Below are positions 14,071 through 33,314 of a stretch of 50,833 nt of DNA, piece after piece. Below the pieces are notes generated by a model. The model had not been told where the DNA came from. It saw nothing but the letters and a program-made list of their open reading frames with translations, and searched no databases. The stretch covers positions 1-50,833 of the forward strand of contig NZ_RCNR01000033.1 in NCBI RefSeq assembly GCF_009725985.1, in the 5' to 3' direction. Every line of letters starts with the position of its first letter. The first letter of the stretch is position 1. The DNA comes from Zobellia amurskyensis (GTDB taxonomy: Bacteria; Bacteroidota; Bacteroidia; Flavobacteriales; Flavobacteriaceae). Position numbers and translations under genes: made by a program.

Positions 14071-16176
14071 ATGAACGCTAATTCACTTCAGACTCCTATA
14101 GTATATCTAAAAGGTGTAGGGCCCAATAGGGCCGAAACGCTACAGTCTGAACTGGGCATACATACGTTTCAGGATTTATTGAACCTTTTCCCTAACAGAT
14201 ATATAGACAAGACCCACTATTATAAGATAGGGCAATTGCAACGTAGCAATGCAGATGTACAGATTATTGGTAAGATTGTCCACCTTAAAACTGTAGAACA
14301 AAAGAAAGGTAAACGCCTTGTTGCGAGCTTTGTTGACGATACCGGGGAAATGGAACTAGTTTGGTTTAGAGGCCAAAAATGGATCAGAGAAAACATAAAG
14401 CTGAATACACCTTATGTCATTTTTGGAAAATGTAATTGGTTCAATGGCAAATTTTCCATGCCACACCCAGAAATGGAACTTTTAAAAGACCATGAACAAG
14501 GGCTTAAAGTGGTCATGCAACCTGTTTACCCTTCCACTGAAAAACTAAGTAACAAAGGTATTTCCAACAGAGTAATAAGCAAATTAGTCCAGCAAATTTT
14601 TGTTGAATCCAAAGGAAGATTTACAGAAACACTCTCTGAGAAATTATTATTTGAATTAAAGCTACTGCCCAAAAGCGAATCGCTTTTTAACATACATTTT
14701 CCGAAAAACCAAGAGCTCTTAGCTAAAGCCCAATTCAGACTAAAATTTGAAGAACTCTTCTATATTCAAATGCAGCTGATAGCAAAGAATATGCTTCACA
14801 AGCAGAAAATAAAAGGGTTCAATTTTGACCAAGTAGGCACAATCTTTAATGAATTTTACAAAAGCCACTTACCTTTTGAACTTACAGGCGCCCAAAAAAG
14901 AGTAATAAAAGAAATAAGAGGTGATTTAGGCAGTAATGCCCAAATGAACCGATTACTTCAAGGTGATGTAGGTTCCGGAAAAACCATAGTTGCGGTTATG
15001 GCTATGCTGCTAGCTATTGACAATGGTTTTCAAGCCTGTTTAATGGCGCCAACTGAAATCTTGGCCAACCAACATTACACCGGTATCTCAGAACTTCTGG
15101 AAGGTACGGGCATTACGTGTTCTCTTTTAACTGGTTCCGTAAAAAAATCGGCCCGCAAACCCATTCATGAACAACTGGAGAGCGGGGAACTTCAAATTCT
15201 TATTGGTACTCACGCGCTTCTGGAAGATAAGGTCAAATTTAAAAATTTAGGCTTGGCCATAGTGGATGAGCAACACCGTTTTGGCGTAGCACAACGCTCT
15301 AGACTATGGCACAAAAACGACATTCCGCCCCATATTTTGGTGATGACGGCAACCCCTATTCCACGAACATTGGCCATGAGCCTATATGGCGATTTAGATG
15401 TTTCTACCATTGATGAACTTCCTCCGGGAAGAAAACCGATTAAAACTGTACACAGGTTTGACAGCAACCGTTTAAAGGTATTTCAATTTATACGGGACGA
15501 AATAAAGAAGGGGCGCCAGATTTACATCGTTTATCCTCTTATACAAGAATCGGAAGCGCTAGACTATAAGGATTTAATGGACGGTTATGAAAGTATTGCA
15601 CGCGACTTTCCCCTACCCGATTTTCAAATATCCATAGTACACGGTCAAATGAAACCAGCAGACAAAGATTATGAGATGGAACGCTTCGTTAAAGGTGAAA
15701 CACAAATCATGGTAGCCACTACCGTTATTGAAGTTGGCGTAAACGTGCCCAATGCATCCGTAATGATTATAGAAAGTGCGGAGCGTTTTGGCTTATCCCA
15801 ACTGCACCAACTTAGAGGTCGTGTGGGTCGCGGTGCCGACCAGAGTTACTGTATTCTTATGACCGGCAACAAATTATCCACAGAAGCCAAAACCAGACTA
15901 CAAACAATGGTACACACCAATGATGGTTTCGAGATTGCAGAAGTTGATTTAAAATTACGAGGGCCAGGTGATATTATGGGTACCCAGCAAAGCGGTGTTC
16001 TAAATTTAAAGATAGCTGATATCGTAAAAGACAACGATATTCTAAAGACTGCACGATATCATGCCATGCAACTTCTTAAAGACGATTCTTCCCTTGAGAA
16101 ACCAGAAAATCTGGTTATTAGGCATGCTTATTCTCAACTTGTGAAGTATAAGAATATTTGGAATTATATAAGTTGA
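14071..16176 (+). CDS. recG: ATP-dependent DNA helicase RecG
   Basis: A 701-residue superfamily-2 helicase that remodels stalled replication forks and branched DNA. An N-terminal wedge/OB-fold domain (about 60-160, VQIIGKIVHLKTVEQKKGK) precedes the motor. Walker A is GDVGSGKT at 298-305, the DExx box is D399-E-Q-H402, and motif III is TATPIPRTLAM. The second motor domain carries TTVIEVGVNVPNA, and motif VI lies in SQLHQLRGRVGRG. Length matches the family. It is transcribed divergently from the M1 peptidase. Confidence 0.97.
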   Translation: MNANSLQTPIVYLKGVGPNRAETLQSELGIHTFQDLLNLFPNRYIDKTHYYKIGQLQRSNADVQIIGKIVHLKTVEQKKGKRLVASFVDDTGEMELVWFRGQKWIRENIKLNTPYVIFGKCNWFNGKFSMPHPEMELLKDHEQGLKVVMQPVYPSTEKLSNKGISNRVISKLVQQIFVESKGRFTETLSEKLLFELKLLPKSESLFNIHFPKNQELLAKAQFRLKFEELFYIQMQLIAKNMLHKQKIKGFNFDQVGTIFNEFYKSHLPFELTGAQKRVIKEIRGDLGSNAQMNRLLQGDVGSGKTIVAVMAMLLAIDNGFQACLMAPTEILANQHYTGISELLEGTGITCSLLTGSVKKSARKPIHEQLESGELQILIGTHALLEDKVKFKNLGLAIVDEQHRFGVAQRSRLWHKNDIPPHILVMTATPIPRTLAMSLYGDLDVSTIDELPPGRKPIKTVHRFDSNRLKVFQFIRDEIKKGRQIYIVYPLIQESEALDYKDLMDGYESIARDFPLPDFQISIVHGQMKPADKDYEMERFVKGETQIMVATTVIEVGVNVPNASVMIIESAERFGLSQLHQLRGRVGRGADQSYCILMTGNKLSTEAKTRLQTMVHTNDGFEIAEVDLKLRGPGDIMGTQQSGVLNLKIADIVKDNDILKTARYHAMQLLKDDSSLEKPENLVIRHAYSQLVKYKNIWNYIS

Positions 16177-16225
16177 ACATCGTAATTTTCAACCGTAATA
16201 ATTTCTTAACAACGCCCACTTTCAT

Positions 16226-16233
16226 TAGATTTG
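16226..16233 (+). promoter_or_regulatory. Bacteroidota-type -7 box upstream of leuC
   Basis: TAGATTTG matches TAnnTTTG and lies 22 bases before the leuC ATG at 16255. No TTG is found at the expected -33 distance. No leader hairpin occurs here, unlike the ilv operon. Confidence 0.45.
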
Positions 16234-16254
16234 TGTGCTTAGAATTTAAATAAA

Positions 16255-17670
16255 ATGAATACAAAAAAAACATTATTCGATAAAGTTTGGGATTCACATG
16301 TGGTTCAACACATAGAGAACGGACCTGACGTATTGTTTATAGACCGCCATTTGGTGCATGAAGTAACGAGTCCCGTTGCTTTTTTAGGTTTAAAAAACAG
16401 AGGCATAAAAGTGCTACACCCTGAAAAAACCTTTGCTACGGCAGATCACAACACGCCTACTATCAACCAACATCTACCTGTTGAAGACCCACTTTCTGCA
16501 AACCAATTGCGCATGTTAGAGGAGAATTCAAATGAATTTGGTATTTCATACTGGGGTCTTGGCCATGAAAAAAATGGTATTGTACACGTTGTTGGTCCGG
16601 AATATGGTATCACACAACCTGGTGCTACAATTGTTTGTGGAGATTCTCATACTTCTACACATGGTGCTTTTGGAGCTATCGCTTTTGGTATTGGTACCTC
16701 AGAAGTAGAAATGGTTTTGGCTACGCAATGCATTATGCAGACCAAACCTAAAAGCATGCGAATTAATGTTGAAGGCAGCTTGAACAGAGGGGTTACTCCT
16801 AAAGATGTTGCTCTTTATATCATCTCTCAATTAACTACTTCTGGCGCTACAGGCTATTTTGTTGAGTACGCTGGTCAGGTTTTTCGCGATATGACCATGG
16901 AAGGTCGTATGACTGTTTGTAACCTTAGTATTGAAATGGGTGCCCGTGGAGGTATGATCGCTCCTGACGAGAAGACATTTGAATATGTTAAAGGAAGAGA
17001 GTTTACTCCAGCCGGTGAAGCATGGGACAAAGCTATGGCGTACTGGGAAACGTTACCAACAGAAGAAGGTGCAGAATTCGATAAAGAAATTACTTTTAAC
17101 GCATCCAACATAGAACCGATGATTACCTACGGTACAAACCCAGGAATGGGCATCGGAATTTCTAATGGAATTCCGCAAGCAGATGCTGTAGAGGGTGGTG
17201 TTGCTACATATAAAAAATCGTTACAGTACATGAACTTCAATGAAGGCGATAGTATGATGGGTAAACCTATCGATTTCGTTTTCTTGGGAAGCTGTACTAA
17301 CGGAAGAATTGAAGATTTTAGATTATTTACTTCTTTGGTAAAAGGACGTTCAAAAGCGCCAAATGTTACGGCATGGTTAGTACCTGGCTCGCACAGAGTA
17401 GAAAAAGCTATAAAAGACGAAGGTCTGTTGGCTATTCTTAACGAAGCTGGTTTTGAACTTCGCGAACCTGGTTGTTCTGCTTGTTTAGCAATGAACGATG
17501 ATAAAGTACCTGCTGGCAAATATGCGGTAAGTACTTCCAACAGGAACTTTGAAGGTAGACAAGGGCCTGGATCAAGAACTCTATTAGCTAGTCCTTTAGT
17601 TGCCGCTGCAGCCGCAGTTACAGGAAAAGTAACAGACCCAAGGGAGCTCATGGAACTTGAAACTGCCTAA
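16255..17670 (+). CDS. leuC: 3-isopropylmalate dehydratase large subunit
   Basis: A 471-residue aconitase-family subunit. With LeuD it isomerises 2-isopropylmalate to 3-isopropylmalate in leucine synthesis. The 4Fe-4S ligands are C347 (GSCTNGR), C407 and C410 ([11 protein letters not shown]). Other signatures are [14 protein letters not shown] near 127-140 and [11 protein letters not shown]. First gene of the plus-strand leu cluster, 39 bases before leuD. Confidence 0.97.
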
Positions 17671-17709
17671 GCTTATTTACATCTAAATTCTGAATTACAA
17701 TTTGAAATT

Positions 17710-18306
17710 ATGGCATACGATAAATTCAATATATTAAAATCATCGGCAGTACCACTTCCTATAGAGAATGTGGATACCGATCAAATTATACCTGCAAGAT
17801 TTTTAAAAGCAACTGAACGTAAAGGTTTTGGCGATAATCTTTTTAGAGATTGGCGTTATAACGGTGACGGTACGGAGAAAAAAGATTTTGTTCTTAACAA
17901 CCCTACCTATAACGGTAAAATTCTAGTTGGAGGAAAAAACTTTGGTTCTGGTTCTTCTCGCGAGCATGCTGCTTGGGCTGTGTATGATTACGGATTCCGT
18001 GTTGTGGTTTCTAGTTTTTTTGCCGATATCTTTAGAAACAACTGCTTGAACATTGGTGTACTACCTGTTCAAGTAAGTGCTGAATTTCTAGATAAAATCT
18101 TAAAAGCTATTGAAGCCGATCCAAAAGCTGCTTTTGAAGTAAGCTTACCAGAGCAAACCATTACTATTGAAGGTAGTGGGGAGTCTGAGTCTTTTGAAAT
18201 TAACGTTTACAAAAAAGCGAACATGTTAAATGGTTTTGACGATATAGACTACCTATTGAATATTTCAGACGAAATTAAAGAATTCGCTTCCGATAGGCCT
18301 TTATAA
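17710..18306 (+). CDS. leuD: 3-isopropylmalate dehydratase small subunit
   Basis: A 198-residue swivelling-domain partner of LeuC. Signatures: VDTDQIIPARFLK near 21-33 and the substrate loop NFGSGSSREHAAWA near 77-90. Length and motifs are typical. A rho-independent terminator follows within the 128-base gap to the next leu gene, which may reduce expression of the distal pair. Confidence 0.97.
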   Translation: MAYDKFNILKSSAVPLPIENVDTDQIIPARFLKATERKGFGDNLFRDWRYNGDGTEKKDFVLNNPTYNGKILVGGKNFGSGSSREHAAWAVYDYGFRVVVSSFFADIFRNNCLNIGVLPVQVSAEFLDKILKAIEADPKAAFEVSLPEQTITIEGSGESESFEINVYKKANMLNGFDDIDYLLNISDEIKEFASDRPL

Positions 18307-18333
18307 GCCATAAATATGGAAGAATAAGGAGAT

Positions 18334-18377
18334 AACAATCTGTTGGATACAACTTCAGCAGATTGTTTTTCCTTTTT
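18334..18377 (+). terminator. Intra-cluster terminator between leuD and leuA
   Basis: AACAATCTG (18334-18342) pairs with CAGATTGTT (18359-18367), followed by a TTTTTCCTTTTT tract. A 9-bp stem with a 16-base loop and a U-rich tail is a good intrinsic terminator, yet it lies between two genes of the same pathway. I see no leader ORF with leucine codons before it, so simple partial termination (polarity) is more likely than attenuation. Confidence 0.65.
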
Positions 18378-18434
18378 CATTACCTGCTACAAAATCAATT
18401 TTAAAAATACTGTTCTAAAGAAACTCTGTATCAA

Positions 18435-19949
18435 ATGAAAAGAAAGCTGGAAATTATGGATACCACCCTTCGGGACGGGGAACAAACCTCGGGAGTATCT
18501 TTTTCGGTTTCGGAAAAACTAACGTTGGCCAAATTACTTTTAGGAGAATTAAAAGTAGACCGCATAGAAGTGGCTTCTGCACGGGTATCGGATGGCGAAC
18601 TAGAATCCGTTAAGCAAATAGCAGAGTGGGCTTCTTCAGAAAAATGTATTGACAAGGTAGAGGTTCTTACCTTTGTTGATGGGGGAGTTTCAATAGAATG
18701 GATGAAAAAGGCAGGTGCCAAGGTTCAGAATTTGCTCACCAAAGGTTCATTGAACCATCTCACCCACCAGCTTAAAAAAACACCGGAAGAACACTTTTCC
18801 GATATTGAAAAAACAATTGCACTTGCCGCTAAAAATAATATCGAGACCAATGTCTATCTAGAAGATTGGAGTAATGGTATGCGAAATTCTAAGGAATACG
18901 TCTTTCAATACCTCGATTTTTTAACTCAGCAACCCGTAAAGCGGGTACTACTTCCAGATACATTAGGTGTGCTTACACACACTGAAACTTACGATTATAT
19001 TTCAGAAATTGTTGCGCGCTATCCTAAAACACATTTTGACTTTCATGGTCATAATGATTACGACCTTGGGGTAGCCAATGTCATGGAAGCTGTTAAAGCC
19101 GGCTGCCATGGTCTTCACCTTACCGTTAACGGAATGGGAGAACGAGCTGGTAATGCCCCAATGGCTAGTGTAGTTGCAGTGATAAAAGATTTTTTAACCG
19201 ATGTAGAAATCAATGTAAGCGAGTCTTCATTATACAAAGTAAGTAAACTAGTATCTGCTTTTACCGGTGTGGGCATACCGTACAACAAACCTATTGTAGG
19301 TGATAATGTTTTTACACAAACTGCCGGAATACATGCTGACGGAGATAGCAAGAACAATCTTTATTTTAATGACTTATTACCAGAACGTTTTGGTAGAAAG
19401 CGCAAGTACGCTTTAGGAAAAACATCCGGAAAGGCCAACATTCAAAAGAACCTTCAGGAGCTTGGACTTACGCTAAATGACGAGGAACTTAAAAAGGTCA
19501 CCCAACGAATTATTGAGTTAGGCGATAAAAAAGAGAGAGTTACAAAAGAGGACCTCCCTTATATTATTTCTGATATTTTAGATAGTGGCAACCACCAACA
19601 AAAGGTTTTCATAAGGTCCTATGTACTTACTCACTCCATGGGGTTGAGACCATCAACCACGGTTTCATTAGAAATAAATGGAGAACTTTCGGAAGCACAT
19701 GCACAGGGAGACGGACAGTACGATGCTTTTATGAACGCTCTACGTAAACTATATGTTTCCAAAAAAATAGAATTACCTAATTTGATTGATTACGCCGTTA
19801 GAATACCACCAGGAAGTAATTCCGATGCACTTTGTGAAACCATTATTACATGGCAAAACAAAAGCGAAGAATTTACAACCAGAGGTTTGGATTCCGATCA
19901 AACGGTATCTGCCATTAAGGCAACAGAAAAGATGCTTAATATTATATAA
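18435..19949 (+). CDS. leuA: 2-isopropylmalate synthase family protein (LeuA-type; citramalate synthase possible)
   Basis: A 504-residue DRE-TIM metallolyase. The DTTLRDGEQ motif is at 9-17, the metal-binding FHGHNDYDLG lies at about 200, and NGMGERAGN follows. The C-terminal LeuA regulatory domain at about 385-504 contains LTHSMGLRPSTTVSLE and GSNSDALCETI. In the catalytic half it resembles CimA/second-type LeuA proteins more than E. coli LeuA. Its place between leuD and leuB and the presence of ilvA nearby (so citramalate is not needed for isoleucine) make the leucine role most likely. It should condense acetyl-CoA with 2-oxoisovalerate and be inhibited by leucine through the C-terminal domain. 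Confidence 0.75.
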   Translation: MKRKLEIMDTTLRDGEQTSGVSFSVSEKLTLAKLLLGELKVDRIEVASARVSDGELESVKQIAEWASSEKCIDKVEVLTFVDGGVSIEWMKKAGAKVQNLLTKGSLNHLTHQLKKTPEEHFSDIEKTIALAAKNNIETNVYLEDWSNGMRNSKEYVFQYLDFLTQQPVKRVLLPDTLGVLTHTETYDYISEIVARYPKTHFDFHGHNDYDLGVANVMEAVKAGCHGLHLTVNGMGERAGNAPMASVVAVIKDFLTDVEINVSESSLYKVSKLVSAFTGVGIPYNKPIVGDNVFTQTAGIHADGDSKNNLYFNDLLPERFGRKRKYALGKTSGKANIQKNLQELGLTLNDEELKKVTQRIIELGDKKERVTKEDLPYIISDILDSGNHQQKVFIRSYVLTHSMGLRPSTTVSLEINGELSEAHAQGDGQYDAFMNALRKLYVSKKIELPNLIDYAVRIPPGSNSDALCETIITWQNKSEEFTTRGLDSDQTVSAIKATEKMLNII

Positions 19950-19966
19950 ATAGAATCAATACGATA

Positions 19967-21022
19967 ATGAAACTAGACATTGCACTATTGGCCGGAGATG
20001 GAATCGGCCCCGAAGTTATTGACCAAGCCGTTAAAGTTTGCGACGCTATCGCAACCAAATATAAGCATGAAATTAGCTGGAAACCTGCATTAACAGGTGC
20101 TGCTGCTATTGATGCTGTTGGTGAACCTTACCCAGATGACACTCACGAAATTTGCGCTAATGCAGATGCCGTTCTTTTTGGGGCTATTGGCCACCCAAGA
20201 TTTGACAATGACCCTTCTGCAAAAGTTCGCCCAGAGCAAGGTTTATTGAAAATGAGACAAAAATTAGGTCTTTTTGCCAATGTACGTCCAACTTTTACAT
20301 TCCCTTCTTTAATTGACAAGTCGCCTTTAAAGCGTGAGCGCATTGAAGGTACCGATTTGATTATTCTTCGAGAACTAACAGGTGGTGTATATTTTGGAGA
20401 ACGTGGAAGAAAAGATGATGGTAACACCGCTTTTGATACCATGACCTATACTCGCGCAGAAATTCAGCGTTTGGCAAAAAAAGGATTTGAAATGGCAATG
20501 ACTCGCTCAAAACGACTTTGCTGTGTTGATAAGGCTAACGTTCTGGAATCTTCCCGCTTATGGAGAGAAACTGTACAAGCCATGGAAAAGGACTACCCAG
20601 AAGTTGAGGTTTCTTATGAATTTGTTGATGCCGTTGCCATGAGATTGGTACAATGGCCAAAAGGGTATGATGTAATCATCACCGAAAACCTTTTTGGAGA
20701 TATTTTAACCGATGAGGCTTCTGTGATCTCAGGATCAATGGGCCTAATGCCTTCTGCTTCTGTTGGTGAGAAAACAAAATTGTACGAGCCTATTCACGGT
20801 TCATACCCACAAGCAGCAGGAAAAGACATTGCCAACCCATTGGCAACCGTACTTTCAGCAGCTATGATGTTTGAAGATTTTGGTCTTCAACAAGAAGCGG
20901 AGGATATCCGTCGTGTAGTAAACAAATCTTTAGCGGAAGGCATTGTTACCGAAGACCTTTCGGAAGATGCCAAATCTTACAAGACAAGCGAAGTTGGCGA
21001 TTGGTTGGCCAAGAACGTTTAA
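19967..21022 (+). CDS. leuB: 3-isopropylmalate dehydrogenase
   Basis: A 351-residue NAD-dependent beta-decarboxylating dehydrogenase that turns 3-isopropylmalate into 2-oxoisocaproate. It starts with ALLAGDGIGPEV; the substrate-specific ELTGGVYFGERG lies near 140-151, the active-site Tyr/Lys region follows, and metal-binding aspartates lie in NLFGDILTDEAS near 245. Seventeen bases after leuA, the last gene of the cluster, followed at once by a strong terminator. Confidence 0.97.
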   Translation: MKLDIALLAGDGIGPEVIDQAVKVCDAIATKYKHEISWKPALTGAAAIDAVGEPYPDDTHEICANADAVLFGAIGHPRFDNDPSAKVRPEQGLLKMRQKLGLFANVRPTFTFPSLIDKSPLKRERIEGTDLIILRELTGGVYFGERGRKDDGNTAFDTMTYTRAEIQRLAKKGFEMAMTRSKRLCCVDKANVLESSRLWRETVQAMEKDYPEVEVSYEFVDAVAMRLVQWPKGYDVIITENLFGDILTDEASVISGSMGLMPSASVGEKTKLYEPIHGSYPQAAGKDIANPLATVLSAAMMFEDFGLQQEAEDIRRVVNKSLAEGIVTEDLSEDAKSYKTSEVGDWLAKNV

Positions 21023-24338: not shown

Positions 24339-25589
24339 CTAAACCAAATATTGAAAAAGATCTGGCTTATCATTCAAATAATCCCCATAAAAATTATTGG
24401 CTTTCATTCGCTCAACCAAAGGCTGGAGATCTTCAGGACTTTTTAATTCAATACCAACAATAGCTGGAGCATTCTCTCTACTAGATTTTTTAGAATATTC
24501 AAAATGGGTAATATCATCATCAGGACCCAAAATCTCCGCTACAAATTCTTTTAAAGCACCAGGTCTTTGCGGGAACCTAACTATAAAATAGTGCTTAAGC
24601 TGACCGTAAAGCAATGCTCGTTCCTTAATTTCCGCAGTTCTAGTAATATCATTATTACTTCCACTAAGAATACAAACTACATTTTTGCCTTTTATTTCTT
24701 CCGCAAATCCATCCAAAGCAGAAATAGTCAATGCACCAGCAGGCTCAACAACTATAGCATCTCTATTGTAAAGATCCAAAATAGTCTGACACACTTTACC
24801 CTCTGCAACAGTTACCATGTCATGGAGTCCGTTTTTACAAATGTCAAAAGTAAGGTCTCCAACTTTCTGCACTGCAGCACCATCAATAAACTTATCTATT
24901 TTAGAAAGTTCAGTATTATTGTTGTTCCTTATAGACGTTTTCATAGAGGGAGCACCTTCCGGCTCTACCCCTATAATTTTGGTGTTTGGAGATAATTCTT
25001 TAAACACCCCTATCAAGCCTGAAGCCAATCCACCACCACCAATAGCAGCAAAGATGTAATCTATAGGTTCCTTAAATTGCTCCAACAGCTCTAGACCTAC
25101 CGTACCTTGACCTTCTATTACCTTGGGGTCGTCAAAAGGGTGAATAAATGTTTTTGAACTGTTCTCACAGAATGCCTTTGCACTTTTTGAAGAATCGTCA
25201 AAAGTATCTCCTTCCAGTACTACCGTTACCCATTCACCACCAAACATTTTGGTCTGTTCAATTTTCTGTTTGGGAGTTACGGACGGCATATATATAGTCC
25301 CGTTTATTTTTAAGTGGTTACAAGCAAAGGCCACACCTTGGGCATGATTTCCCGCACTGGCACAAACAATACCACTCTCTCTTTCTTTTTCTGAAAGCGA
25401 ACTAATTTTATTAAAAGCTCCACGGATTTTATAGGAACGCACCCGATGCAAGTCTTCTCTTTTAAGAAGAATGTTGGCATCAAACACTTTTGACAAGCGT
25501 ATGCTGGTCATAAGCGGTGTAACCGTTGCTACTTGAGCAATAGTACTGGCCGCCTTTTTTATATCCGATATATTGGGAAAATATGCCAT
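24339..25589 (-). CDS. ilvA: Threonine deaminase (threonine ammonia-lyase)
   Basis: A 416-residue PLP enzyme that converts threonine to 2-oxobutyrate, the first step to isoleucine. The PLP lysine is K54 in RVRSYKIRGAF. The phosphate-binding glycines are in AAIGGGGLASGL, and SAGNHAQGVAF also fits. The C-terminal part (about 330-416, HYFIVRFPQRPGALKEFV) is a single ACT-like regulatory domain, the shorter form of the family, so feedback by isoleucine and valine is likely. It is the last gene of the ilv operon; its start codon is overlapped by the U run of a hairpin, see 25593-25657. Confidence 0.95.
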   Translation of the reverse strand: MAYFPNISDIKKAASTIAQVATVTPLMTSIRLSKVFDANILLKREDLHRVRSYKIRGAFNKISSLSEKERESGIVCASAGNHAQGVAFACNHLKINGTIYMPSVTPKQKIEQTKMFGGEWVTVVLEGDTFDDSSKSAKAFCENSSKTFIHPFDDPKVIEGQGTVGLELLEQFKEPIDYIFAAIGGGGLASGLIGVFKELSPNTKIIGVEPEGAPSMKTSIRNNNNTELSKIDKFIDGAAVQKVGDLTFDICKNGLHDMVTVAEGKVCQTILDLYNRDAIVVEPAGALTISALDGFAEEIKGKNVVCILSGSNNDITRTAEIKERALLYGQLKHYFIVRFPQRPGALKEFVAEILGPDDDITHFEYSKKSSRENAPAIVGIELKSPEDLQPLVERMKANNFYGDYLNDKPDLFQYLV

Positions 25590-25592
25590 ATT

Positions 25593-25657
25593 AAAAAACC
25601 CTGTCTAGAGTTTTAACTTTCCGTTGTTCTGGAAGACTAAAAAAACCGGACAGGGTT
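25593..25657 (-). promoter_or_regulatory. Terminator-like hairpin abutting the ilvA start codon
   Basis: In the ilvC-ilvA gap, minus-strand AACCCTGTC (25657-25649) pairs with GACAGGGTT (25605-25597), a 9-bp stem closing a 43-base loop that contains a small TTCC/GGAA hairpin. Six T (25598-25593) follow, ending three bases before the ilvA ATG. It could terminate part of the transcripts before ilvA or hold its start region. No leader ORF is present in this gap. Confidence 0.5.
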
Positions 25658-25667
25658 GTTTTATTAA

Positions 25668-27143
25668 TTATACAATCGGCTTCATTGCCGTCATAGAAGC
25701 ACGAAGTCTTGCTCCTACAATTTCTACTGGGTGATCACGAAGTACTTTATTCACCGTAATCAATTTAGCGTTATCAACACCATTTCCTTTACCACCAGCA
25801 TATGCCTTACCGATTACGTCCGTATCAATATTTTTCATGAAATCAGTCAATAAAGGCTTACATGCATGATCAAACAAGTAACAACCGTACTCAGCAGTAT
25901 CAGAAATTACACGGTTCATTTCGAACAATTTCTTTCTTGCAATAGTATTAGCAATTAATGGAGTTTCATGTAAAGACTCGTAGTAAGCAGACTCACCGAT
26001 GATTCCCGACTCTGTCATACTTTCAAAAGCCAATTCAACACCAGCTCTAACCATAGCGATCATCAACACGCCATTGTCATAAAACTCTTGTTCAGAAATG
26101 TTATCATCACCTGCCGGAGTTTTTTCAAAAGCGGTTTCGCCTGTTGCAGCACGCCAAGTCAATAAGTTTTTATCATCATTGGCCCAATCTTCCATCATTG
26201 TTTTTGAGAAATGACCAGTCATAATATCATCCATATGCTTTTGGAAAAGCGGACGCATAATATCTTTCAATTCTTCTGAAAGTTCAAAAGCTTTGATTTT
26301 TGCAGGATTTGACAAACGGTCCATCATATTAGTGATACCACCGTATTTCATTCCTTCGGTAATGGTTTCCCATCCGTATTGAATCAATTTAGAAGCATAA
26401 CCAGCGTCTATACCTTTCTCTATCATTTTATCGAAACAAAGGATACTTCCAGTTTGCAACAATCCACAAAGGATAGTTTGCTCACCCATTAAATCCGATT
26501 TTACTTCGGCAACAAAAGAAGACTCAAGAACACCGGCTCTATGCCCACCTGTACCGGCAGCATATGCTTTAGCTTGCTCCAAACCTTTTCCTTCTGGATC
26601 ATTCTCTGGGTGAACCGCTATTAGAGTTGGCACACCAAAACCTCTTTTATATTCTTCACGAACCTCAGAACCTGGACTCTTTGGCGCTACCATTATAACC
26701 GTAAGATCCTCACGAACCTGAGTACCCTCTTCAACAATATTAAAACCGTGAGAATAGGATAATGTAGCTCCTTTTTTCATTAACGGCATTACCGCATTAA
26801 CCACAGCAGTATGTTGCTTATCCGGAGTAAGGTTAATAACTACATCGGCACTAGGAATCAATTCCTCATACGTGCCAACAGTAAATCCGTTTTCACTAGC
26901 ATTTAAAAACGATTGTCTTTTTTCTTTAATTGCAGCATCACGCAAGGTATAGGCGATATCCAAACCTGAATCACGCATATTCAACCCTTGGTTCAAACCT
27001 TGGGCTCCACAACCAACTATAACTATTTTTTTTCCTTTTAAAGCTGATACACCATCGGCGAATTCTGAAGCTTCCATGAACCTACATTTGCCCAATTGCG
27101 TCAGTTGATCTCTTAATGATAGTGTATTAAAGTAATTTGCCAT
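25668..27143 (-). CDS. ilvC: Ketol-acid reductoisomerase (class II, long form)
   Basis: A 491-residue NADPH enzyme that converts acetolactate or acetohydroxybutyrate to the dihydroxy acids. The Rossmann motif is [18 protein letters not shown] at about 42-59. The family signatures HGFNIVEEG and [12 protein letters not shown] follow, and [11 protein letters not shown] marks the first knotted C-terminal domain. Its length, with a duplicated C-terminal domain, is the plant/E. coli type rather than the short 330-residue type. Third enzyme in the ilv order, 95 bases after ilvN. Confidence 0.97.
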
Positions 27144-27238
27144 TTTTCAATCGTGTTTTTCAAATTCTATCCAAAGTTATTCTAAAAATAGACTAAGACC
27201 AGAATCCTTTATTAAATTAATTATTGATTTCTATTTAG

Positions 27239-27769
27239 TTATTTATCTTGATAAAACTCATTAAGCAAAGCGGTAATGGGCATTTCTTCTTTTGAAACCG
27301 AAATACGACCAGTACGCACAAATTGCATGATACCAAAAGGTTTCAATTGGTCGTACATCTCGTTGATTTCGTTTCTACGACCTGATTTTGCAATTACAAA
27401 AAAGTCTCGGGCAACAGTTACTATTTGTGAATTGTTATCCTTAATAATATTCTGAATCTGTCTTTCGTCAAAAAGCAGGTTAGAAGCTATTTTAAACAAA
27501 ACCGATTCTTGATAAATGGTTTCTTCATCTGTATGATAAAACGCTTTTATCACCTCAATTTGCTTCTCTATTTGGCCCACGATATTACGAGTCCATTTTT
27601 CCGTAGTATAAACAACAATAGTGAATTTAGAAACGCCCTCAATTTCTGATTTTGAAACGTTTAAACTCTCTATATTAATGTGTCTCTTTAAGAATATTCC
27701 AGAGATTCTATTCAGTAAACCTACATTGTTTTCAGAATATACCGATATAGTAAACCATTCTTTTTCCAT
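27239..27769 (-). CDS. ilvN: Acetolactate synthase small (regulatory) subunit
   Basis: 176 residues. An N-terminal ACT domain (about 4-75, FTISVYSENNVGLLNRISGIF) binds valine and carries feedback control of IlvB. The C-terminal ALS-small domain is at about 85-165 (VARDFFVIAKSGRRNEI). It is separated from ilvB by a methyltransferase gene, which is unusual; the two subunits are normally adjacent. Confidence 0.94.
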   Translation of the reverse strand: MEKEWFTISVYSENNVGLLNRISGIFLKRHINIESLNVSKSEIEGVSKFTIVVYTTEKWTRNIVGQIEKQIEVIKAFYHTDEETIYQESVLFKIASNLLFDERQIQNIIKDNNSQIVTVARDFFVIAKSGRRNEINEMYDQLKPFGIMQFVRTGRISVSKEEMPITALLNEFYQDK

Positions 27770-27909
27770 TGTTCAATTTAATAGGGTTTTATCGAGCGCA
27801 GCCGATAACAAACATTGTATTTTTTAACCTCTCAACTGCACCTGAGAGCGGATTTCCTTATTAAAAGACAACCCATTATTCTTTTACATTCACCTCCAAA
27901 AGGTATTGT

Positions 27910-28491
27910 CTAGCTATTTTTAACAGCAATAATTAACCCTGTAGACCAGTTTAATTTGGTTAACGTAAAGTCTGCTCTTTTCTCTAAATAAGCTACCAAA
28001 CGCTCCACATTATCTTCATGTCCTTCCGGCCAATTGGGCTGAGCGGTCATATCATCTATCACATAAAAACCACCAACCTTTACAAAATCCAAAACTTCAT
28101 CAATCTCACTGTATTTCCCTGGCCAAGCATCTGCAAAGATCAAATCAAATTTTCCTCCTGAATAATTCTTAATCCATTCCGAACCATCTTCACAATATAG
28201 CTTCACCCTTTTATCCGCCTCAAAATAGTCTTTGACTATAGCAATCAGCTTAGGGTCATTATCAACTGAAATCAATTCAGATTCTGCATCCATACCATCT
28301 ACCATCCATGACAGGCTCAAGCCTATACCAGTACCCAGTTCCAAAAATTTACCTTTTGGTTTTGAAGCCATAAGTGTTTTCAACAAGGTACCTATGTACA
28401 CATCCGAAGGCATGGTAAAACCAATTTCTGCCGACTTCTGCTCAATTTGCTGATGGATTTTTGGTTTGTCCTGTATATTGGAATCTATCAC
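27910..28491 (-). CDS. Class I SAM-dependent O-methyltransferase-like protein inside the ilv operon
   Basis: 193 residues with a Rossmann-type methyltransferase fold. Motif I is FLELGTGIGLSLSWM at about 49-63, the acidic motif II residue is in LISVDNDP, and motif IV is FDLIFADAWPGKY. VGGFYVIDDM marks the following strand. It resembles the O-methyltransferase/methyltransferase-24 group (catechol or CoA-ester type). The reading frame opens with GTG at 28491; no upstream in-frame ATG exists, and a later ATG (residue 24) would cut the N-terminal helix. It lies 48 bases after ilvB and 140 before ilvN on the same strand and so must be co-transcribed. Substrate unknown. Confidence 0.8.
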   Translation of the reverse strand: MIDSNIQDKPKIHQQIEQKSAEIGFTMPSDVYIGTLLKTLMASKPKGKFLELGTGIGLSLSWMVDGMDAESELISVDNDPKLIAIVKDYFEADKRVKLYCEDGSEWIKNYSGGKFDLIFADAWPGKYSEIDEVLDFVKVGGFYVIDDMTAQPNWPEGHEDNVERLVAYLEKRADFTLTKLNWSTGLIIAVKNS

Positions 28492-28539
28492 TTCTTTTGT
28501 TTAGATGGTTGTATTACGGAGTTCCTTAGCTTTAACCAA

Positions 28540-30273
28540 TTACTTTAGACGAACTTCGGAAACCGAGGCTCCAGAAGGAATCATCGGAAATACGTTATCT
28601 TCTTTCTCCACTTTCACTTCTAAGAAATAAGGCTCTTTAGAAGCAATCATTTCCTTAATTGCAATTTTCAGGTCTTCTCGAGTACTCACTCTTTTCGCTT
28701 CAATACTATACCCTTCTGCAATTTTCACAAAATCAGGATTAACCATTACTGTTGAAGCGTATCTTCTATCAAAGAACAACTCTTGCCATTGGCGTACCAT
28801 ACCTAAGTGATCATTATTCAACACCACTATCTTAACAGGTACTTTATGCTGAAAAATTACACCCAACTCCTGAATGGTCATTTGATAACCACCATCTCCT
28901 ATAATAGCTACTACTTCACGCTCCATAGCACCCATTTTGGCACCAATAGCAGCTGGAAGAGCAAAACCCATAGTACCAAGACCTCCTGAGGTTATGTTAC
29001 TTTTACTCTGCTTGAATTTAGCATAGCGACAACCGATCATCTGGTGCTGCCCAACATCCGTAACAATAACGGCTTTTTGCTCAGATTCAACATTTATCCG
29101 TTCGATAACCTCACCCATAGTCAACCCTTCTTTAGTGGGGTGAATATCATTGTTGATTACCTGCTCAAATTCTATTTTATAATATTCCTTGAACTCATTG
29201 TGCCAAGCCTCGTGCTTATTTTCATTGATCATTGGCAACAATAGACCCAAAGTATCTTTTGAATTACCCAAGACAGCTACATCTGCATGTACGTTCTTGT
29301 TGATTTCCGCCTTGTCTATCTCAAAATGGATGACTTTAGCTTGTTTTGCATAAGTATCCAAACTGCCCGTTACACGATCATCAAAACGCATACCGATAGC
29401 AATTAAGACATCACACTCGTTCGTTAACATGTTTGGCGCATAATTACCATGCATACCCACCATACCTACATTCAATGGGTGCTCACTATCTAAAGCCGAA
29501 GCTCCCATAATGGTCCAAGCTGCAGGAACTCCAGACTTTTCCACCAAAGCTTTAAGCTCTTCTTCGGCCTTACCCAAAATAACACCTTGACCCCAAACAA
29601 TCAGCGGTTTTTTAGCGTTATTAATAAGTTCTGCCGCCGCTTCTATAGCTGGAACACTTGGTTTAGGTTCCGGGTTATAACTACGTACAGCTGTGCACTT
29701 TTCATAACTAAATTCAAACTCATCAATCTGAGCATTTTTAGTAATATCTACCAAAACCGGACCTGGTCTTCCTGACCTAGCAATGTAGAATGCTTTTGCC
29801 ATTATCTCTGGAATTTCAGAAGCCTCGGTTATCTGATAATTCCATTTTGTAACTGGCGTAGAGATTCCGATAATATCGGTTTCTTGAAAAGCATCCGATC
29901 CTAATAAATGACGTGTAACCTGACCGGTAATACACACCATTGGCGTAGAATCTATTTGTGCATCTGCCAGTCCTGTAACAAGGTTTGTAGCCCCTGGGCC
30001 AGATGTAGCCATAGCAACACCTACCCTACCGGAAACTCTAGCATACCCCTGAGCGGCATGAGTAGCTCCTTGCTCATGACGGGTTAAAATGTGAGTAAGT
30101 TTATCCTGAAATTTATATAACTCATCGTAAACCGGCATAATGGCACCACCCGGGTAACCATATAGCAAATCTACACCCTCAGCCAATAAACAATGTATAA
30201 TGGCTTCTGCACCACTAATTTTAAGCTTTGTTTTCTTTGGGTTCACTTCCGTTTTTATTTTAACTGTTTCCAT
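28540..30273 (-). CDS. ilvB: Acetolactate synthase large (catalytic) subunit
   Basis: A 577-residue ThDP- and FAD-dependent enzyme that condenses two pyruvates, or pyruvate with 2-oxobutyrate. The ThDP-activating glutamate is in RHEQGATHAAQGYARVSGR near 67. The FAD/linker domain contains VIAIGMRFDDRVTGSLD. The ThDP-binding motif GDGGYQM...NNDHLGMVRQWQ lies at about 455-490. Length is typical for anabolic AHAS. Second gene of the operon, 87 bases after ilvD; the gap holds two hairpins. Confidence 0.96.
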   Translation of the reverse strand: METVKIKTEVNPKKTKLKISGAEAIIHCLLAEGVDLLYGYPGGAIMPVYDELYKFQDKLTHILTRHEQGATHAAQGYARVSGRVGVAMATSGPGATNLVTGLADAQIDSTPMVCITGQVTRHLLGSDAFQETDIIGISTPVTKWNYQITEASEIPEIMAKAFYIARSGRPGPVLVDITKNAQIDEFEFSYEKCTAVRSYNPEPKPSVPAIEAAAELINNAKKPLIVWGQGVILGKAEEELKALVEKSGVPAAWTIMGASALDSEHPLNVGMVGMHGNYAPNMLTNECDVLIAIGMRFDDRVTGSLDTYAKQAKVIHFEIDKAEINKNVHADVAVLGNSKDTLGLLLPMINENKHEAWHNEFKEYYKIEFEQVINNDIHPTKEGLTMGEVIERINVESEQKAVIVTDVGQHQMIGCRYAKFKQSKSNITSGGLGTMGFALPAAIGAKMGAMEREVVAIIGDGGYQMTIQELGVIFQHKVPVKIVVLNNDHLGMVRQWQELFFDRRYASTVMVNPDFVKIAEGYSIEAKRVSTREDLKIAIKEMIASKEPYFLEVKVEKEDNVFPMIPSGASVSEVRLK

Positions 30274-30360: not shown

Positions 30361-32037
30361 TTAAAACTCATCGGTTACACAACCTTGCGCAGCAGATGAA
30401 ACTGAACGTGCGTATTTGTACAACACTCCCTTTTTAAACTTCAATTCAGGCTGGACCCAAGATTCTTTTCTTTTGGCCAATACTTCGTCCGAAACCTCTA
30501 CATTAATAGAATTCGTCTCGGCATCAATCGTAATAATATCACCATCTTCGATCAAAGCTATATTACCACCATCTTGCGCTTCTGGAGAAATATGTCCAAC
30601 AACGAAACCGTGCGTACCTCCTGAGAAGCGACCGTCTGTTATTAGAGCTACATCCTTACCTAGTCCCGCACCCATAATAGCTGCCGTAGGCTTAAGCATT
30701 TCAGGCATACCCGGGCCCCCTTTTGGACCTTCGTAACGAATGACCACAACATCTCCTTTTTTCACTAAACCGGTACGGATACCATCATTGGCCGCATATT
30801 CGCCATTAAAAACTTTTGCAGTTCCTTTGAACAACAAACCTTCTTTACCCGTAATTTTTGCTACAGAGCCATTTTCAGCAAGGTTACCATACAACATACG
30901 TAAGTGACCCGTTGCTTTAATAGGATTATCTAAAGGCATAATTACATCTTGCCCTTCCTCTAAATCCGGAACATCTTTAAGGTTTTCCGCCAAAGTGTTT
31001 CCGGTCACTGTCAAACAATCGCCATGTAGCAATCCGTTTTTCAGAAGGTATTTCAATACTGCTGGAATTCCACCAACTCGGTGAACGTCTTCCATTAGAT
31101 ACTTGCCACTCGGCTTTAAATCGGCTATAAATGGAGTTGTATCACTAATATGTTGGAAATCTTGTAATGTAAACTCAATATCAGCAGCTCTTGCTATTGC
31201 CAAGAAATGTAATACCGCATTAGTAGAACCTCCCATAATAGTCACTAAACGAATAGCGTTTTCTAGGGATTTACGGGTAACAATATCCAAAGGCTTAATA
31301 TCCTTTTCAATAAGTATGCGCATTTGCTTACCTGCAGCTATACACTCTTCTTCCTTATTACTACTAATAGCAGGGTTTGAAGAATTATAAGGCATGGACA
31401 TACCCAGAGCCTCTATTGCAGATGCCATAGTATTTGCGGTATACATACCACCACATGCACCCGCACCTGGAATTGATTTTTTAATAATACTTCTGTATTC
31501 GGGTTCTTCCATAGTACCCGCAACTTTCTCGCCCCATGCTTCAAAAGCAGAAACGATATCTAATTTTTTACTATTGTGACACCCTGAAGCAATTGTACCA
31601 CCATATACCAAAATTGAAGGACGGTTAAGGCGCAACATAGCCATAAGAGCGCCAGGCATATTTTTATCACAACCCACTACCGTTACAAGACCATCATAAG
31701 ACATACCCTGAACAACAGTTTCCATAGAGTCTGCAATAATATCTCTTGACGGAAGCGAAAAACGCATACCAGGAGTTCCCATAGAAATTCCATCACTAAC
31801 ACCAATAGTATTAAAAATAAGACCAACGGTTTCTTTTGAGTTGACACCTTCTTTCACCAATTTGGCCAAATCGTTCAAGTGCATGTTACAAGGATTGCCC
31901 TCATAACCGGTACTTGCGATACCAATTAATGGTTTACTAAAATCTTCATCTTTGAAACCTATTGCATAAAGCATTGCTTGTGCAGCTGGTTGTGTTGAAT
32001 CTTGTGTTACGTTTTTACTGTATTTATTCAGTTCCAT
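30361..32037 (-). CDS. ilvD: Dihydroxy-acid dehydratase
   Basis: A 558-residue Fe-S dehydratase that makes 2-oxoisovalerate and 3-methyl-2-oxovalerate. Cluster-binding cysteines are in [11 protein letters not shown] (about 50), [10 protein letters not shown] (about 122) and [17 protein letters not shown] (about 195). The C-terminal signature [22 protein letters not shown] is complete. First structural gene of the ilv operon. It is preceded by a leader of about 370 bases with an attenuator, and a second possible -7 box (TACCTTTG on minus, 32088-32095) lies 51 bases upstream. Confidence 0.97.
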
Positions 32038-32283
32038 TAAGCGTTATATAATTGGTTGTTCAGTTTACAATATGTACTCTCTATATTCAAAGGTATTCTT
32101 TTCTTTATTTCAGCATTTCAGGTGTGGCTTTCGTATCTAAATCCAAGAGTTTAAAAAATTATACAAAACCCTAATAAACAGACTTTTAACTGCTTATTTT
32201 TATCATATTCAATTCGTCATTTTTCACTTAAATAACATAGTTTTCAAAGTTCGAATAAGACACATTGTCATATAAAACCTTTA

Positions 32284-32329
32284 AAAACAAAAAAAGGCCT
32301 GTATCAAACGAATTAGATACAGGCCTTTC
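32284..32329 (-). terminator. ilv attenuator terminator hairpin
   Basis: On the minus strand AAAGGCCTGTATC-type arms (32328-32316 and 32305-32293) form a perfect 13-bp stem with a 10-base loop, followed by TTTTTTTGTTTTT. It stands 20 bases after the stop of a branched-chain-rich leader ORF and 247 bases before ilvD. The 5' part of its first arm, CTGTATC (32322-32316), can instead pair with GATGCAG (32350-32344), giving an antiterminator of seven pairs including one G-U. Confidence 0.8.
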
Positions 32330-32348
32330 TAAACTATGAAAATCTGCA

Positions 32349-32405
32349 TCATTCTCTTTTGAGAATGACCTTAATAACCACAGTTGTATGAGTTTTGATT
32401 TTCAT
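32349..32405 (-). CDS. ilv operon leader peptide (attenuation), 18 residues
   Basis: A short ORF, M-K-I-K-T-H-T-T-V-V-I-K-V-I-L-K-R-E-stop. Nine of the 18 residues are Thr, Val, Ile or Leu (T5, T7, T8, V9, V10, I11, V13, I14, L15), or ten with I3: exactly the amino acids that the downstream operon makes or uses as precursor. The last control codons GTC-ATT-CTC and the sequence after them form a 7-bp hairpin (CATTCTC / GAGAATG, 32367-32350). A stalled ribosome here would free downstream RNA to pair as antiterminator. It starts 70 bases after the pxpC stop. A one-mismatch -7 box TAATATTG (32418-32411) with TTG 20 bases before lies just ahead, so the mRNA may be nearly leaderless. Confidence 0.75.
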   Translation of the reverse strand: MKIKTHTTVVIKVILKRE

Positions 32406-32474
32406 TAGAACAATATTAGACAAAATGTTGCAGCGGGACAATAAATTATTCGTAGAAATACACCATTATAATTA

Positions 32475-33314
32475 TCAATTCAATTTGAATTCTACCTCAT
32501 CTCCATATTTCTTTTGCGCAAGTACGGAAATAGCTCTATCCGATAGCTGAAGAATACGGGGGTACCCTCCTGTTGTCTGACCATCTTTCATTAAAACGAT
32601 CAGTTTACCAGATGGTGTTAGCTGCACAGTACCCGGAAGCGTGGCCGATGTAATCATAGAGGTTTGAATCCCCTCTATTTTTTCCTCTAGCTGATAGGCC
32701 ATTCTATTATTTTCATTGGATATACTAAATTTCTTAGCGAACAACATCTCTAGTTGTCTATCCGAAAGATTCTCGTATTCGGGCCCTTGAGAAACCTTGA
32801 GATTAGTTTCATCTAAGAATGAATCTACCTTTAGCTTACTGATTTTAGGTTCAAAATGAGCGCATGCTTCATACTCCAATGTATCTCCATCAGCAAGGTG
32901 ATTCTTTTTTGTTATGGAAGAAAAGAGTGAGCGACTACCCAAAACCAATGGGGTCTTAAAACCACCTTTAACCGCTAAATAACTCCGAAACCCTTTTTCC
33001 AATTTACCATAAGAGAGAATATCTCCTTTCCTTACCTTAAGAACTTCATAGTTTTCAATAGGTTTATTATTCAACGTTACGGAAAGCAACGCTCCACCCA
33101 TGGTTATAAAAGTTTCTTCCTCGAACATTACGGTTGGCCCTGTCATAGTAATTTCTAGTACAGCCGCGTTCTCATCATTATCTAAAAGTTGATTTGTTTT
33201 TTTTGCCGAAAACCCATCCATAAATCCGGCAACGGGCACGCCCTTATTCAAATATCCGTACCTGCCGATATCCTGAACCGCCGTAAAAAGTCCCGATTTA
33301 AGAATTTTAAGCAT
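32475..33314 (-). CDS. pxpC: 5-oxoprolinase subunit PxpC (biotin-dependent carboxyltransferase-like)
   Basis: A 279-residue cyclophilin-like protein of the KipA/AHS2 family. With PxpA and PxpB it hydrolyses 5-oxoproline to glutamate using ATP. Signatures: SGLFTAVQDIGRYGYLNKGVP near 7-27, GSRSLFSS, QVSQGPEYENL-like segments, and the C-terminal MKDGQTTGGYPRILQLSD. It overlaps the pxpB end by 8 bases. The ilv leader follows 70 bases downstream on the same strand. Confidence 0.92.
   Translation of the reverse strand: MLKILKSGLFTAVQDIGRYGYLNKGVPVAGFMDGFSAKKTNQLLDNDENAAVLEITMTGPTVMFEEETFITMGGALLSVTLNNKPIENYEVLKVRKGDILSYGKLEKGFRSYLAVKGGFKTPLVLGSRSLFSSITKKNHLADGDTLEYEACAHFEPKISKLKVDSFLDETNLKVSQGPEYENLSDRQLEMLFAKKFSISNENNRMAYQLEEKIEGIQTSMITSATLPGTVQLTPSGKLIVLMKDGQTTGGYPRILQLSDRAISVLAQKKYGDEVEFKLN

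What the first reader, a model, noticed from the sequence alone, without database searches (positions are those of the whole stretch)
32284..32405. Leader-peptide attenuator in front of the ilv operon
An 18-codon ORF has clustered Thr, Val, Ile and Leu codons (T7 T8 V9 V10 I11 V13 I14 L15). The control codons sit inside one arm of a 7-bp hairpin (32350-32367). Twenty bases after the stop comes a 13-bp terminator with a U run, and the sequence just after the first hairpin (GATGCAG, 32350-32344) can pair with the first terminator arm (CTGTATC, 32322-32316) as an antiterminator. This is the full set of parts of ribosome-stalling attenuation as known from the ilv and thr operons of enterobacteria. 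It is easily missed because the ORF is so short. In a phylum that barely uses Shine-Dalgarno sites the coupling may work differently; the likely promoter lies so close that the leader mRNA may be leaderless.
Basis: partly seen in the sequence, partly recalled or inferred. Interest (0 to 1): 0.75.

Follow-up and report, generated by a model that had tools for sequence, protein, structure and literature searches.

The report
Ribosome-stalling switch before isoleucine-valine genes
In a marine Zobellia-type bacterium, a tiny gene rich in isoleucine and valine codons and three competing RNA hairpins most likely let ribosomes report amino acid shortage and switch on the isoleucine-valine genes; the principle is long known, but here the tiny gene seems to start almost at the RNA's first base, and a number of relatives carry two such switches in a row.

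Summary
The window is from Zobellia (Flavobacteriaceae). The 18-codon ORF (32405-32349, minus strand), the hairpin over its last codons and stop, the antiterminator arm and the terminator are all there. ORF and terminator are kept in 9 of 9 Zobellia genomes. Such units were found in 61 of 152 regions before ilvD, against 4 of 152 on the opposite strand and 0 of 760 shuffles. Hairpin 1:2 and terminator covary; the antiterminator keeps pairing through wobble changes only. Ribosome-stalling attenuation is well supported, untested by experiment. Control codons are Ile and Val; Thr and Leu are not enriched. A -7 box 5 nt before the ATG suggests a nearly leaderless mRNA. The same genome has his and trp leaders. 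It is a new member of a known kind: Rfam holds Bacteroid-trp, and attenuation clues are published for F. psychrophilum. Beyond the claim: two attenuators in series in 20 of 81 unit-bearing loci, three in one genome, and a promoter-like box between attenuator and ilvD that could bypass it.

The parts
32439..32441 (-). TTG, possible -33 element of P1, 20 nt before the -7 box
   Evidence: sequence; weak on its own
32411..32418 (-). TAATATTG, -7 box of promoter P1 (5 of 6 positions of TAnnTTTG); predicted transcript start near 32406, one base before the ATG
   Evidence: numbering -12 to -5 from PMC9723704 (passage); start not measured
32349..32405 (-). leader ORF MKIKTHTTVVIKVILKRE, stop TGA 32351-32349
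   Evidence: present in 9 of 9 Zobellia genomes
32361..32369 (-). arm 1, codons V13 I14 L15 (GTCATTCTC)
32348..32356 (-). arm 2 of hairpin 1:2 (GAGAATGAT), overlapping the stop codon
32344..32350 (-). antiterminator arm 2' (GATGCAG)
32316..32328 (-). arm 3 (AAAGGCCTGTATC); its CTGTATC (32322-32316) can pair with arm 2' or with arm 4
32289..32305 (-). arm 4 (GATACAGGCCTTT) and the run of T: intrinsic terminator
32201..32213 (-). conserved box ATTGAATATGATA upstream of P2, also in some loci without an attenuator
32135..32146 (-). conserved box TTGGATTTAGAT
32088..32095 (-). TACCTTTG, exact TAnnTTTG: second promoter-like site P2, downstream of the attenuator
30361..32037 (-). ilvD, first gene after the leader
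   Evidence: TIGR00110 over its cut-off
24339..30273 (-). ilvB (30273-28540), methyltransferase-like gene (28491-27910), ilvN (27769-27239), ilvC (27143-25668), ilvA (25589-24339)
   Evidence: that they form one transcription unit is inferred from order and strand

Best explanation
It is a ribosome-mediated transcription attenuator of the ilvD-B-(methyltransferase)-N-C-A genes. Transcription starts at P1, at or one base before the leader ATG, so the leader is translated as a nearly leaderless mRNA right behind RNA polymerase. With enough charged Ile- and Val-tRNA the ribosome reaches the stop codon and covers arm 2', arm 3 pairs with arm 4 and transcription ends near 32289. When Ile or Val is short the ribosome stalls around V10, I11, V13 or I14, hides arm 1 and leaves arm 2' free to pair with arm 3; the terminator cannot form and polymerase goes on to ilvD. 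Without translation hairpin 1:2 should favour termination. Shown: the parts, their conservation and covariation, the codon bias, the predicted folds. Inferred: the transcript start, stalling, coupling, and termination itself.
For: Parts and fold. ORF and terminator in 9 of 9 Zobellia genomes. Units in 61 of 152 regions against 4 of 152 opposite strand and 0 of 760 shuffles at the strict setting. On 31 rows: hairpin 1:2 93.9% of cells paired, 30 cells changed on both sides (9.0 in shuffles, 0 of 500 as high); terminator 97.8%, 22 such cells (6.3, 0 of 500); antiterminator 216 of 217 cells paired, 27 of them by a wobble change. On all 41 rows: 92.1, 97.6 and 98.3%. With arm 1 hidden the antiterminator is the predicted fold in 42 of 42 units whose arms were located (of 47); with the leader free, in 13 of 42. 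Ile 4.1-fold and Val 2.2-fold enriched, Leu 0.57, Thr 0.64, though the search counted T, V, I, L alike. Terminator class C has a different, matching arm 2/arm 3 pair. his and trp leaders in the same genome, HHH and WWW kept in 9 of 9 Zobellia genomes.
Against: No RNA or translation data. 61 of 155 loci searched showed no unit. Two of the shuffle measures are weak: pairs changed on both sides in hairpin 1:2 (5 against 3.3; 33 of 500 as high) and pair types in the terminator (134 of 500). The antiterminator has no two-sided change, so shuffles cannot test it; for class B, arm 2 fits other class B arm 3s no better (11.7) than class A ones (11.9), and five units had only 4-bp matches. 3 of 41 class A rows break one or two antiterminator pairs. 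In 13 of 42 units, L005, L009 and L010 of Zobellia among them, the free leader is also predicted to form the antiterminator. P2 could transcribe ilvD past the attenuator. The 42 of 42 is partly by construction, since arms were found by sequence pattern.
Confidence: 0.93

Rival explanations
1. The hairpin is only the terminator of the upstream genes on the same strand (carboxyltransferase and LamB/YcsF families; pxp/kip-type by recall), and the ORF is chance.
For: The upstream gene ends at 32475 on the same strand, 146 nt before the terminator.
Against: A chance ORF would not keep V13 I14 in 9 of 9 Zobellia genomes or recur family-wide, nor show a covarying hairpin over its stop codon, nor stand before ilvE in loci where ilvE comes first. 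A double role as upstream terminator is not excluded.
Confidence: 0.03
2. Leader control that does not depend on tRNA charging: the peptide or the short RNA acts in trans, or a ligand or protein binds the RNA.
For: A trp attenuator RNA that starts at the ATG of its leader ORF, and its peptide, act in trans in Sinorhizobium meliloti (PMC7298713, passages).
Against: Peptide sequences vary widely while Ile/Val content is kept. No Rfam family reaches its cut-off at this site; best are trpB 26.3 against 59 and Thr_leader 24.8 against 55 bits.
Confidence: 0.03
3. The attenuator is real but matters little, because most ilv transcripts start at P2, downstream of it (not exclusive of the best explanation).
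For: Exact TAnnTTTG 15-110 nt before ilvD in 34 of 72 loci with a unit and 31 of 66 labelled without, shuffles 6.5% and 8.7%; 16 of 34 and 8 of 31 lie at 49-50 nt.
Against: The attenuator parts are clearly under selection. P2 is a motif match only.
Confidence: 0.25

Closest known systems
Enterobacterial ilvGMEDA and thr operon attenuators (recalled)
   Same: Short leader ORF with codons of end products, mutually exclusive 1:2, 2:3 and 3:4 hairpins, intrinsic terminator
   Different: Probable leaderless start, Ile/Val without Leu enrichment; Rfam Thr_leader scores 24.8 bits against a cut-off of 55
Rfam RF01692 Bacteroid-trp leader
   Same: Leader-peptide RNA of Bacteroidetes; the trp leader of this very genome matches it, 51.8 bits against a cut-off of 49; also a table row in PMC2864571
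   Different: Tryptophan, not Ile/Val; the ilv unit reaches no Rfam cut-off
Attenuation clues upstream of amino acid operons in Flavobacterium psychrophilum (PMC9723704, passages)
   Same: Same family of bacteria, leader-peptide attenuation suggested from RNA-seq
   Different: 'ilv' does not occur in its main text; its supplementary Table S7 could not be read here
Sinorhizobium meliloti trpL (PMC7298713, passages)
   Same: Attenuator RNA whose 5' end is the leader ATG
   Different: Other phylum and amino acid
Tandem attenuators of Salmonella mgtCBR (PMC3641672, passages)
   Same: Two attenuators in one leader
   Different: Two different signals there; here both leaders carry Ile/Val codons and each has a terminator

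Membership tests
Ribosome-mediated leader-peptide transcription attenuator | short ORF with clustered codons of the end product | tested here: met
   Ile 29.4% and Val 15.1% of leader residues in 101 units against 7.1% and 6.9% in 11 window proteins; in the window itself 3 Ile and 3 Val of 18 codons
Ribosome-mediated leader-peptide transcription attenuator | intrinsic terminator before the first structural gene | tested here: met
   termination itself not measured
Ribosome-mediated leader-peptide transcription attenuator | antiterminator that excludes the terminator | tested here: met
   99.5% of cells paired on 31 rows, 98.3% on 41, wobble changes only; different matching arms in class C, weak for class B
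Ribosome-mediated leader-peptide transcription attenuator | hairpin 1:2 overlapping control codons and stop | tested here: met
   covariation score 0.507 against 0.321 in shuffles, 0 of 500 as high
Ribosome-mediated leader-peptide transcription attenuator | translation of the leader and response to tRNA charging | not testable with these tools
   needs ribosome profiling and reporter assays
Leaderless mRNA | transcript starts at or within a few bases of the start codon | tested here: inconclusive
   -7 box match of 5-6 of 6 within 1-12 nt of the ATG in 69 of 81 first units, 24% in shuffles, 1 of 20 later units; a promoter match, not a mapped start
Rfam Thr_leader RF00506 | score over the curated cut-off | tested here: not met
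   24.8 bits against 55

The most novel reading that the evidence does not exclude
Flavobacteriaceae run a family-wide type of attenuator suited to a phylum that hardly uses Shine-Dalgarno sites: the leader is read as a nearly leaderless mRNA from a promoter whose -7 box sits about 5-10 nt before the ATG, and a number of lineages stack two, once three, same-signal Ile/Val attenuators in series. In the stacks only the first unit has its own promoter-like box; the second leader usually starts a few to some thirty nt after the first terminator. Such stacks would sharpen the response and cut leakage, since polymerase must pass two checkpoints that both need stalled ribosomes.
Probability: 0.6. Interest if true: 0.68.

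Novelty: new member of a known kind. Interest (0 to 1): 0.5.

Why it matters
Ribosome-mediated attenuation needs a ribosome close behind polymerase from the first codons. Finding it conserved, for ilv and within Zobellia also for his and trp, in bacteria that hardly use Shine-Dalgarno sites makes two questions directly testable there: whether transcription and translation are coupled, and how translation starts on mRNAs with almost no 5' leader. The tandem arrays offer a natural test of what a second, same-signal checkpoint adds.

Tried and rejected
Rejected: Thr as a control amino acid (0.64-fold). Rejected: a known riboswitch or Rfam leader at this site. No leader of this kind was seen before the two homoserine dehydrogenase genes or in window 15801-16330 before leuC. 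The RNA model R1 has one strong hit in the window's genome, the ilv site (88 bits); its others there are the mirror match on the opposite strand (44 bits) and a weak one on another contig (35 bits) that shows no such unit.

Weak or led nowhere: class-wide search. Of 119 Bacteroidia genomes 23, the own included, had an ilvD match at 1e-150; of the 23 fetched loci two, in one genus of the same family, show a clear unit and a third a weak candidate. One Saprospiraceae MAG locus (L079) has a unit. Spread beyond Flavobacteriaceae is therefore poorly known. Class B antiterminators scored weakly; in some the ORF runs past the usual stop and my search stretch was short, so this is unsettled. In the IlvD tree starred branches force at least 5 changes of the label 'tandem', but 'none' labels include false negatives and duplicates, so no history is claimed.

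Rows dropped or set aside: L056 (same record as L003). Three loci with under 400 nt upstream. Ten of 41 class A rows left out of alignment A1 by hand: L005, L006, L007, L008, L010 (near copies) and L127, L130, L150, L154, L176 (irregular spacing); one search counts all 41. One search looked only 900 nt upstream, so class A units before ilvE are not in A1. In one search, 5 of 47 class A units had no locatable arms, and one labelled class A (L042, first unit) is a class B unit caught by my pattern. Two family genomes with ilvD (G141, G190) were not fetched. In 21 loci the ilvD start was taken from the match position. The 155 loci hold some species twice. In one search the 66 loci labelled without a unit include copies of unit-bearing ones (L136, L155). 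In one search, where a second or third residue is Met, the later ATG was used.

Papers: nine searches listed no paper on an ilv attenuator or on same-signal tandem leader-peptide attenuators in Bacteroidetes; searches list 30 of 112 and 15 of 30 hits, and most subscription journals are not held. A 2004 paper by Vitreschak et al., recalled as covering Bacteroidetes/Chlorobi, was not found under the DOI I tried. Lopatovskaya et al. 2010 was seen only as a reference title. Either may already predict this site.

Full report
What is there. The window is from a Zobellia (Flavobacteriaceae): a genome of the same genus (G006) has its ilvD on a contig of the same length (644008) as one of Zobellia russellii KMM 3677, 98% identical to the window's IlvD in both. 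On the minus strand, 311 nt before ilvD, lies an 18-codon ORF, MKIKTHTTVVIKVILKRE (32405-32349). About 20 nt after its stop begins an intrinsic terminator (32328-32316 with 32305-32293, then T to 32289). Arm 1 (32369-32361, codons V13 I14 L15) pairs with 32356-32348 across the stop codon; GATGCAG (32350-32344) can instead pair with CTGTATC (32322-32316) inside the terminator. The 122-nt stretch folds at -42.7 kcal/mol against -19.9 for shuffles, z -7.2. The genes that follow are ilvD, ilvB, a methyltransferase-like gene, ilvN, ilvC and ilvA.

Is it more than chance? All 9 of 9 Zobellia genomes have the ORF (18 codons; in two an extra in-frame ATG precedes it) and the terminator, with V13 I14 unchanged; the hairpin arms line up. 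A search for short ORFs with clustered T/V/I/L codons followed by a terminator found a unit in 61 of 152 upstream regions at the strict setting, against 4 of 152 on the opposite strand and 0 of 760 dinucleotide shuffles; at the loosest setting 78, 11 and 7. Where ilvE comes before ilvD, units stand before ilvE. In 61 of 155 loci no unit was found; model R1 gave one partial hit among these, four hold under 450 nt of upstream DNA, and in a few ilvE comes first and the DNA held may stop short.

Structure. I aligned 31 of 41 distinct units of the window's class (terminator arm CTGTATC). Hairpin 1:2: 93.9% of cells paired, 30 cells changed on both sides against 9.0 in shuffles, covariation 0.507 against 0.321, 0 of 500 as high for both; the number of pairs with such changes, 5, was reached in 33 of 500. 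Terminator: 97.8%, 22 two-sided cells against 6.3, 0 of 500; pair types 134 of 500. Antiterminator: 216 of 217 cells paired, 27 through a one-sided wobble change, none through a two-sided change, so shuffling cannot test it; slid versions pair in 18-47% of cells. On all 41 rows: 92.1, 97.6 and 98.3%. Further support comes from class C, where both arms differ (AAGGGAT with ATCCCTT; own score 15.4, against 12.6 with class A and 12.1 with class B arms). Class B (GGGAA with TTCCC) is weaker: own 14.1, but 11.7 with other class B arms and 11.9 with class A. Over 47 units the mean score was 16.8 against 11.7 (sd 0.34) after shuffling arm 2.

Which amino acids. In 101 distinct units Ile is 29.4% of leader residues (4.1 times the window's proteins) and Val 15.1% (2.2 times); Leu is 0.57 and Thr 0.64 times background, though the search counted T, V, I and L alike. 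Geometry agrees if the ribosome covers about 12 nt ahead of its A site (recalled, not computed by a call): stalls at V10 to I14 hide arm 1 in part or whole and leave GATGCAG free, stalls at Thr 7-8 do not reach arm 1, a ribosome at the stop covers GATGCAG. With arm 1 hidden the antiterminator is the predicted fold in 42 of 42 units with located arms (of 47); with the leader free in 13 of 42 (window stretch).

Start of the transcript. In Flavobacterium psychrophilum the sigma-A box TAnnTTTG lies at -12 to -5 (PMC9723704, passage). Here TAATATTG (32418-32411) would put the start at about 32406, one base before the ATG. A match of at least 5 of 6 lies within 1-12 nt of the ATG in 69 of 81 first units; 24% in shuffles; 21 of 81 in the same sequences 16-27 nt upstream; 1 of 20 later units. 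The spacing is 5 nt in 17 of 25 single class A units, nine of these being Zobellia, and 8-10 nt in 32 of 43 other first or single units. The trp leader has TATATTTG 5 nt before its ATG. Leaderless mRNAs were only 5.5% of the 890 examined in F. psychrophilum, and 5' UTRs under 10 nt about 3.7% in Bacteroides thetaiotaomicron (PMC7366714, passage), so this would be an unusual feature. It is a prediction from promoter matches.

Not alone in the genome. A leader MKNRTTHHHIHTHAQAR stands before hisG and MNRNNTNTWWWNNSRQIS before a trpE-like gene (chorismate-binding family), each with a terminator. HHH and WWW are kept in 9 of 9 Zobellia genomes. The trp leader matches Rfam RF01692 Bacteroid-trp, so leader-peptide RNAs in Bacteroidetes are already catalogued; the ilv unit reaches no Rfam cut-off.

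Tandem units. Of 81 loci with at least one distinct unit, 20 have two: 16 a non-CTGTATC unit first and a CTGTATC unit second, and the second ATG is 4-31 nt after the first terminator in 16 of 20. A few more appear under a looser rule (L032, L123, L150, L207). One genome (G218) has three before ilvE; the last two are near copies that differ in the peptide (MTTYTNSIIISIIIRSTE, MPTYTNSIIISIIIRSIE). Salmonella mgtCBR has tandem attenuators for two different signals (PMC3641672, passages); my searches listed no same-signal tandem leader-peptide attenuators.

A bypass. Between terminator and ilvD lies a second promoter-like box, TACCTTTG (32095-32088). An exact TAnnTTTG is found 15-110 nt before ilvD in 34 of 72 loci with a unit and 31 of 66 labelled without (that label includes some copies of unit-bearing loci), against 6.5 and 8.7% in shuffles, with 16 of 34 and 8 of 31 at 49-50 nt. 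Upstream of it ATTGAATATGATA (32213-32201) and TTGGATTTAGAT (32146-32135) recur at nearly fixed distances, also in loci where no unit was found (L051, L052, L072, L146, L148). So the attenuator would govern transcripts from P1 only; P2 may give a basal or separately regulated supply.

Verdict. In this window it is a new member of a known kind; the family-wide nearly leaderless and tandem design is the more novel part and awaits experiment.

Noticed in passing
window 32213-32088: Promoter-like box P2 with two further conserved boxes between attenuator and ilvD, present also in some loci without an attenuator; may be a separately regulated promoter.
   Followed up: partly
L209 54-390 (G218): Three tandem Ile-rich leaders with terminators before ilvE; the last two are near copies.
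   Followed up: partly
L192 (own genome C57), L193 (own genome C37): his (HHHIHTH) and trp (WWW) leader peptides with terminators before hisG and a trpE-like gene; the trp one matches Rfam RF01692.
   Followed up: yes
window 27910-28491: O-methyltransferase-like gene between ilvB and ilvN.
   Followed up: partly
window 16255-21022: leuC- and leuD-type genes (named from recall), then a synthase closer to citramalate synthase CimA (690 bits, below its cut-off of 950) than to LeuA (282 against 598.7), then a leuB-type gene: possibly a citramalate route to isoleucine.
   Followed up: no
L030 2111-2170, L046 891-949, L208 1514-1572: SAM-II riboswitch matches near the ilv loci of three relatives.
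   Followed up: no
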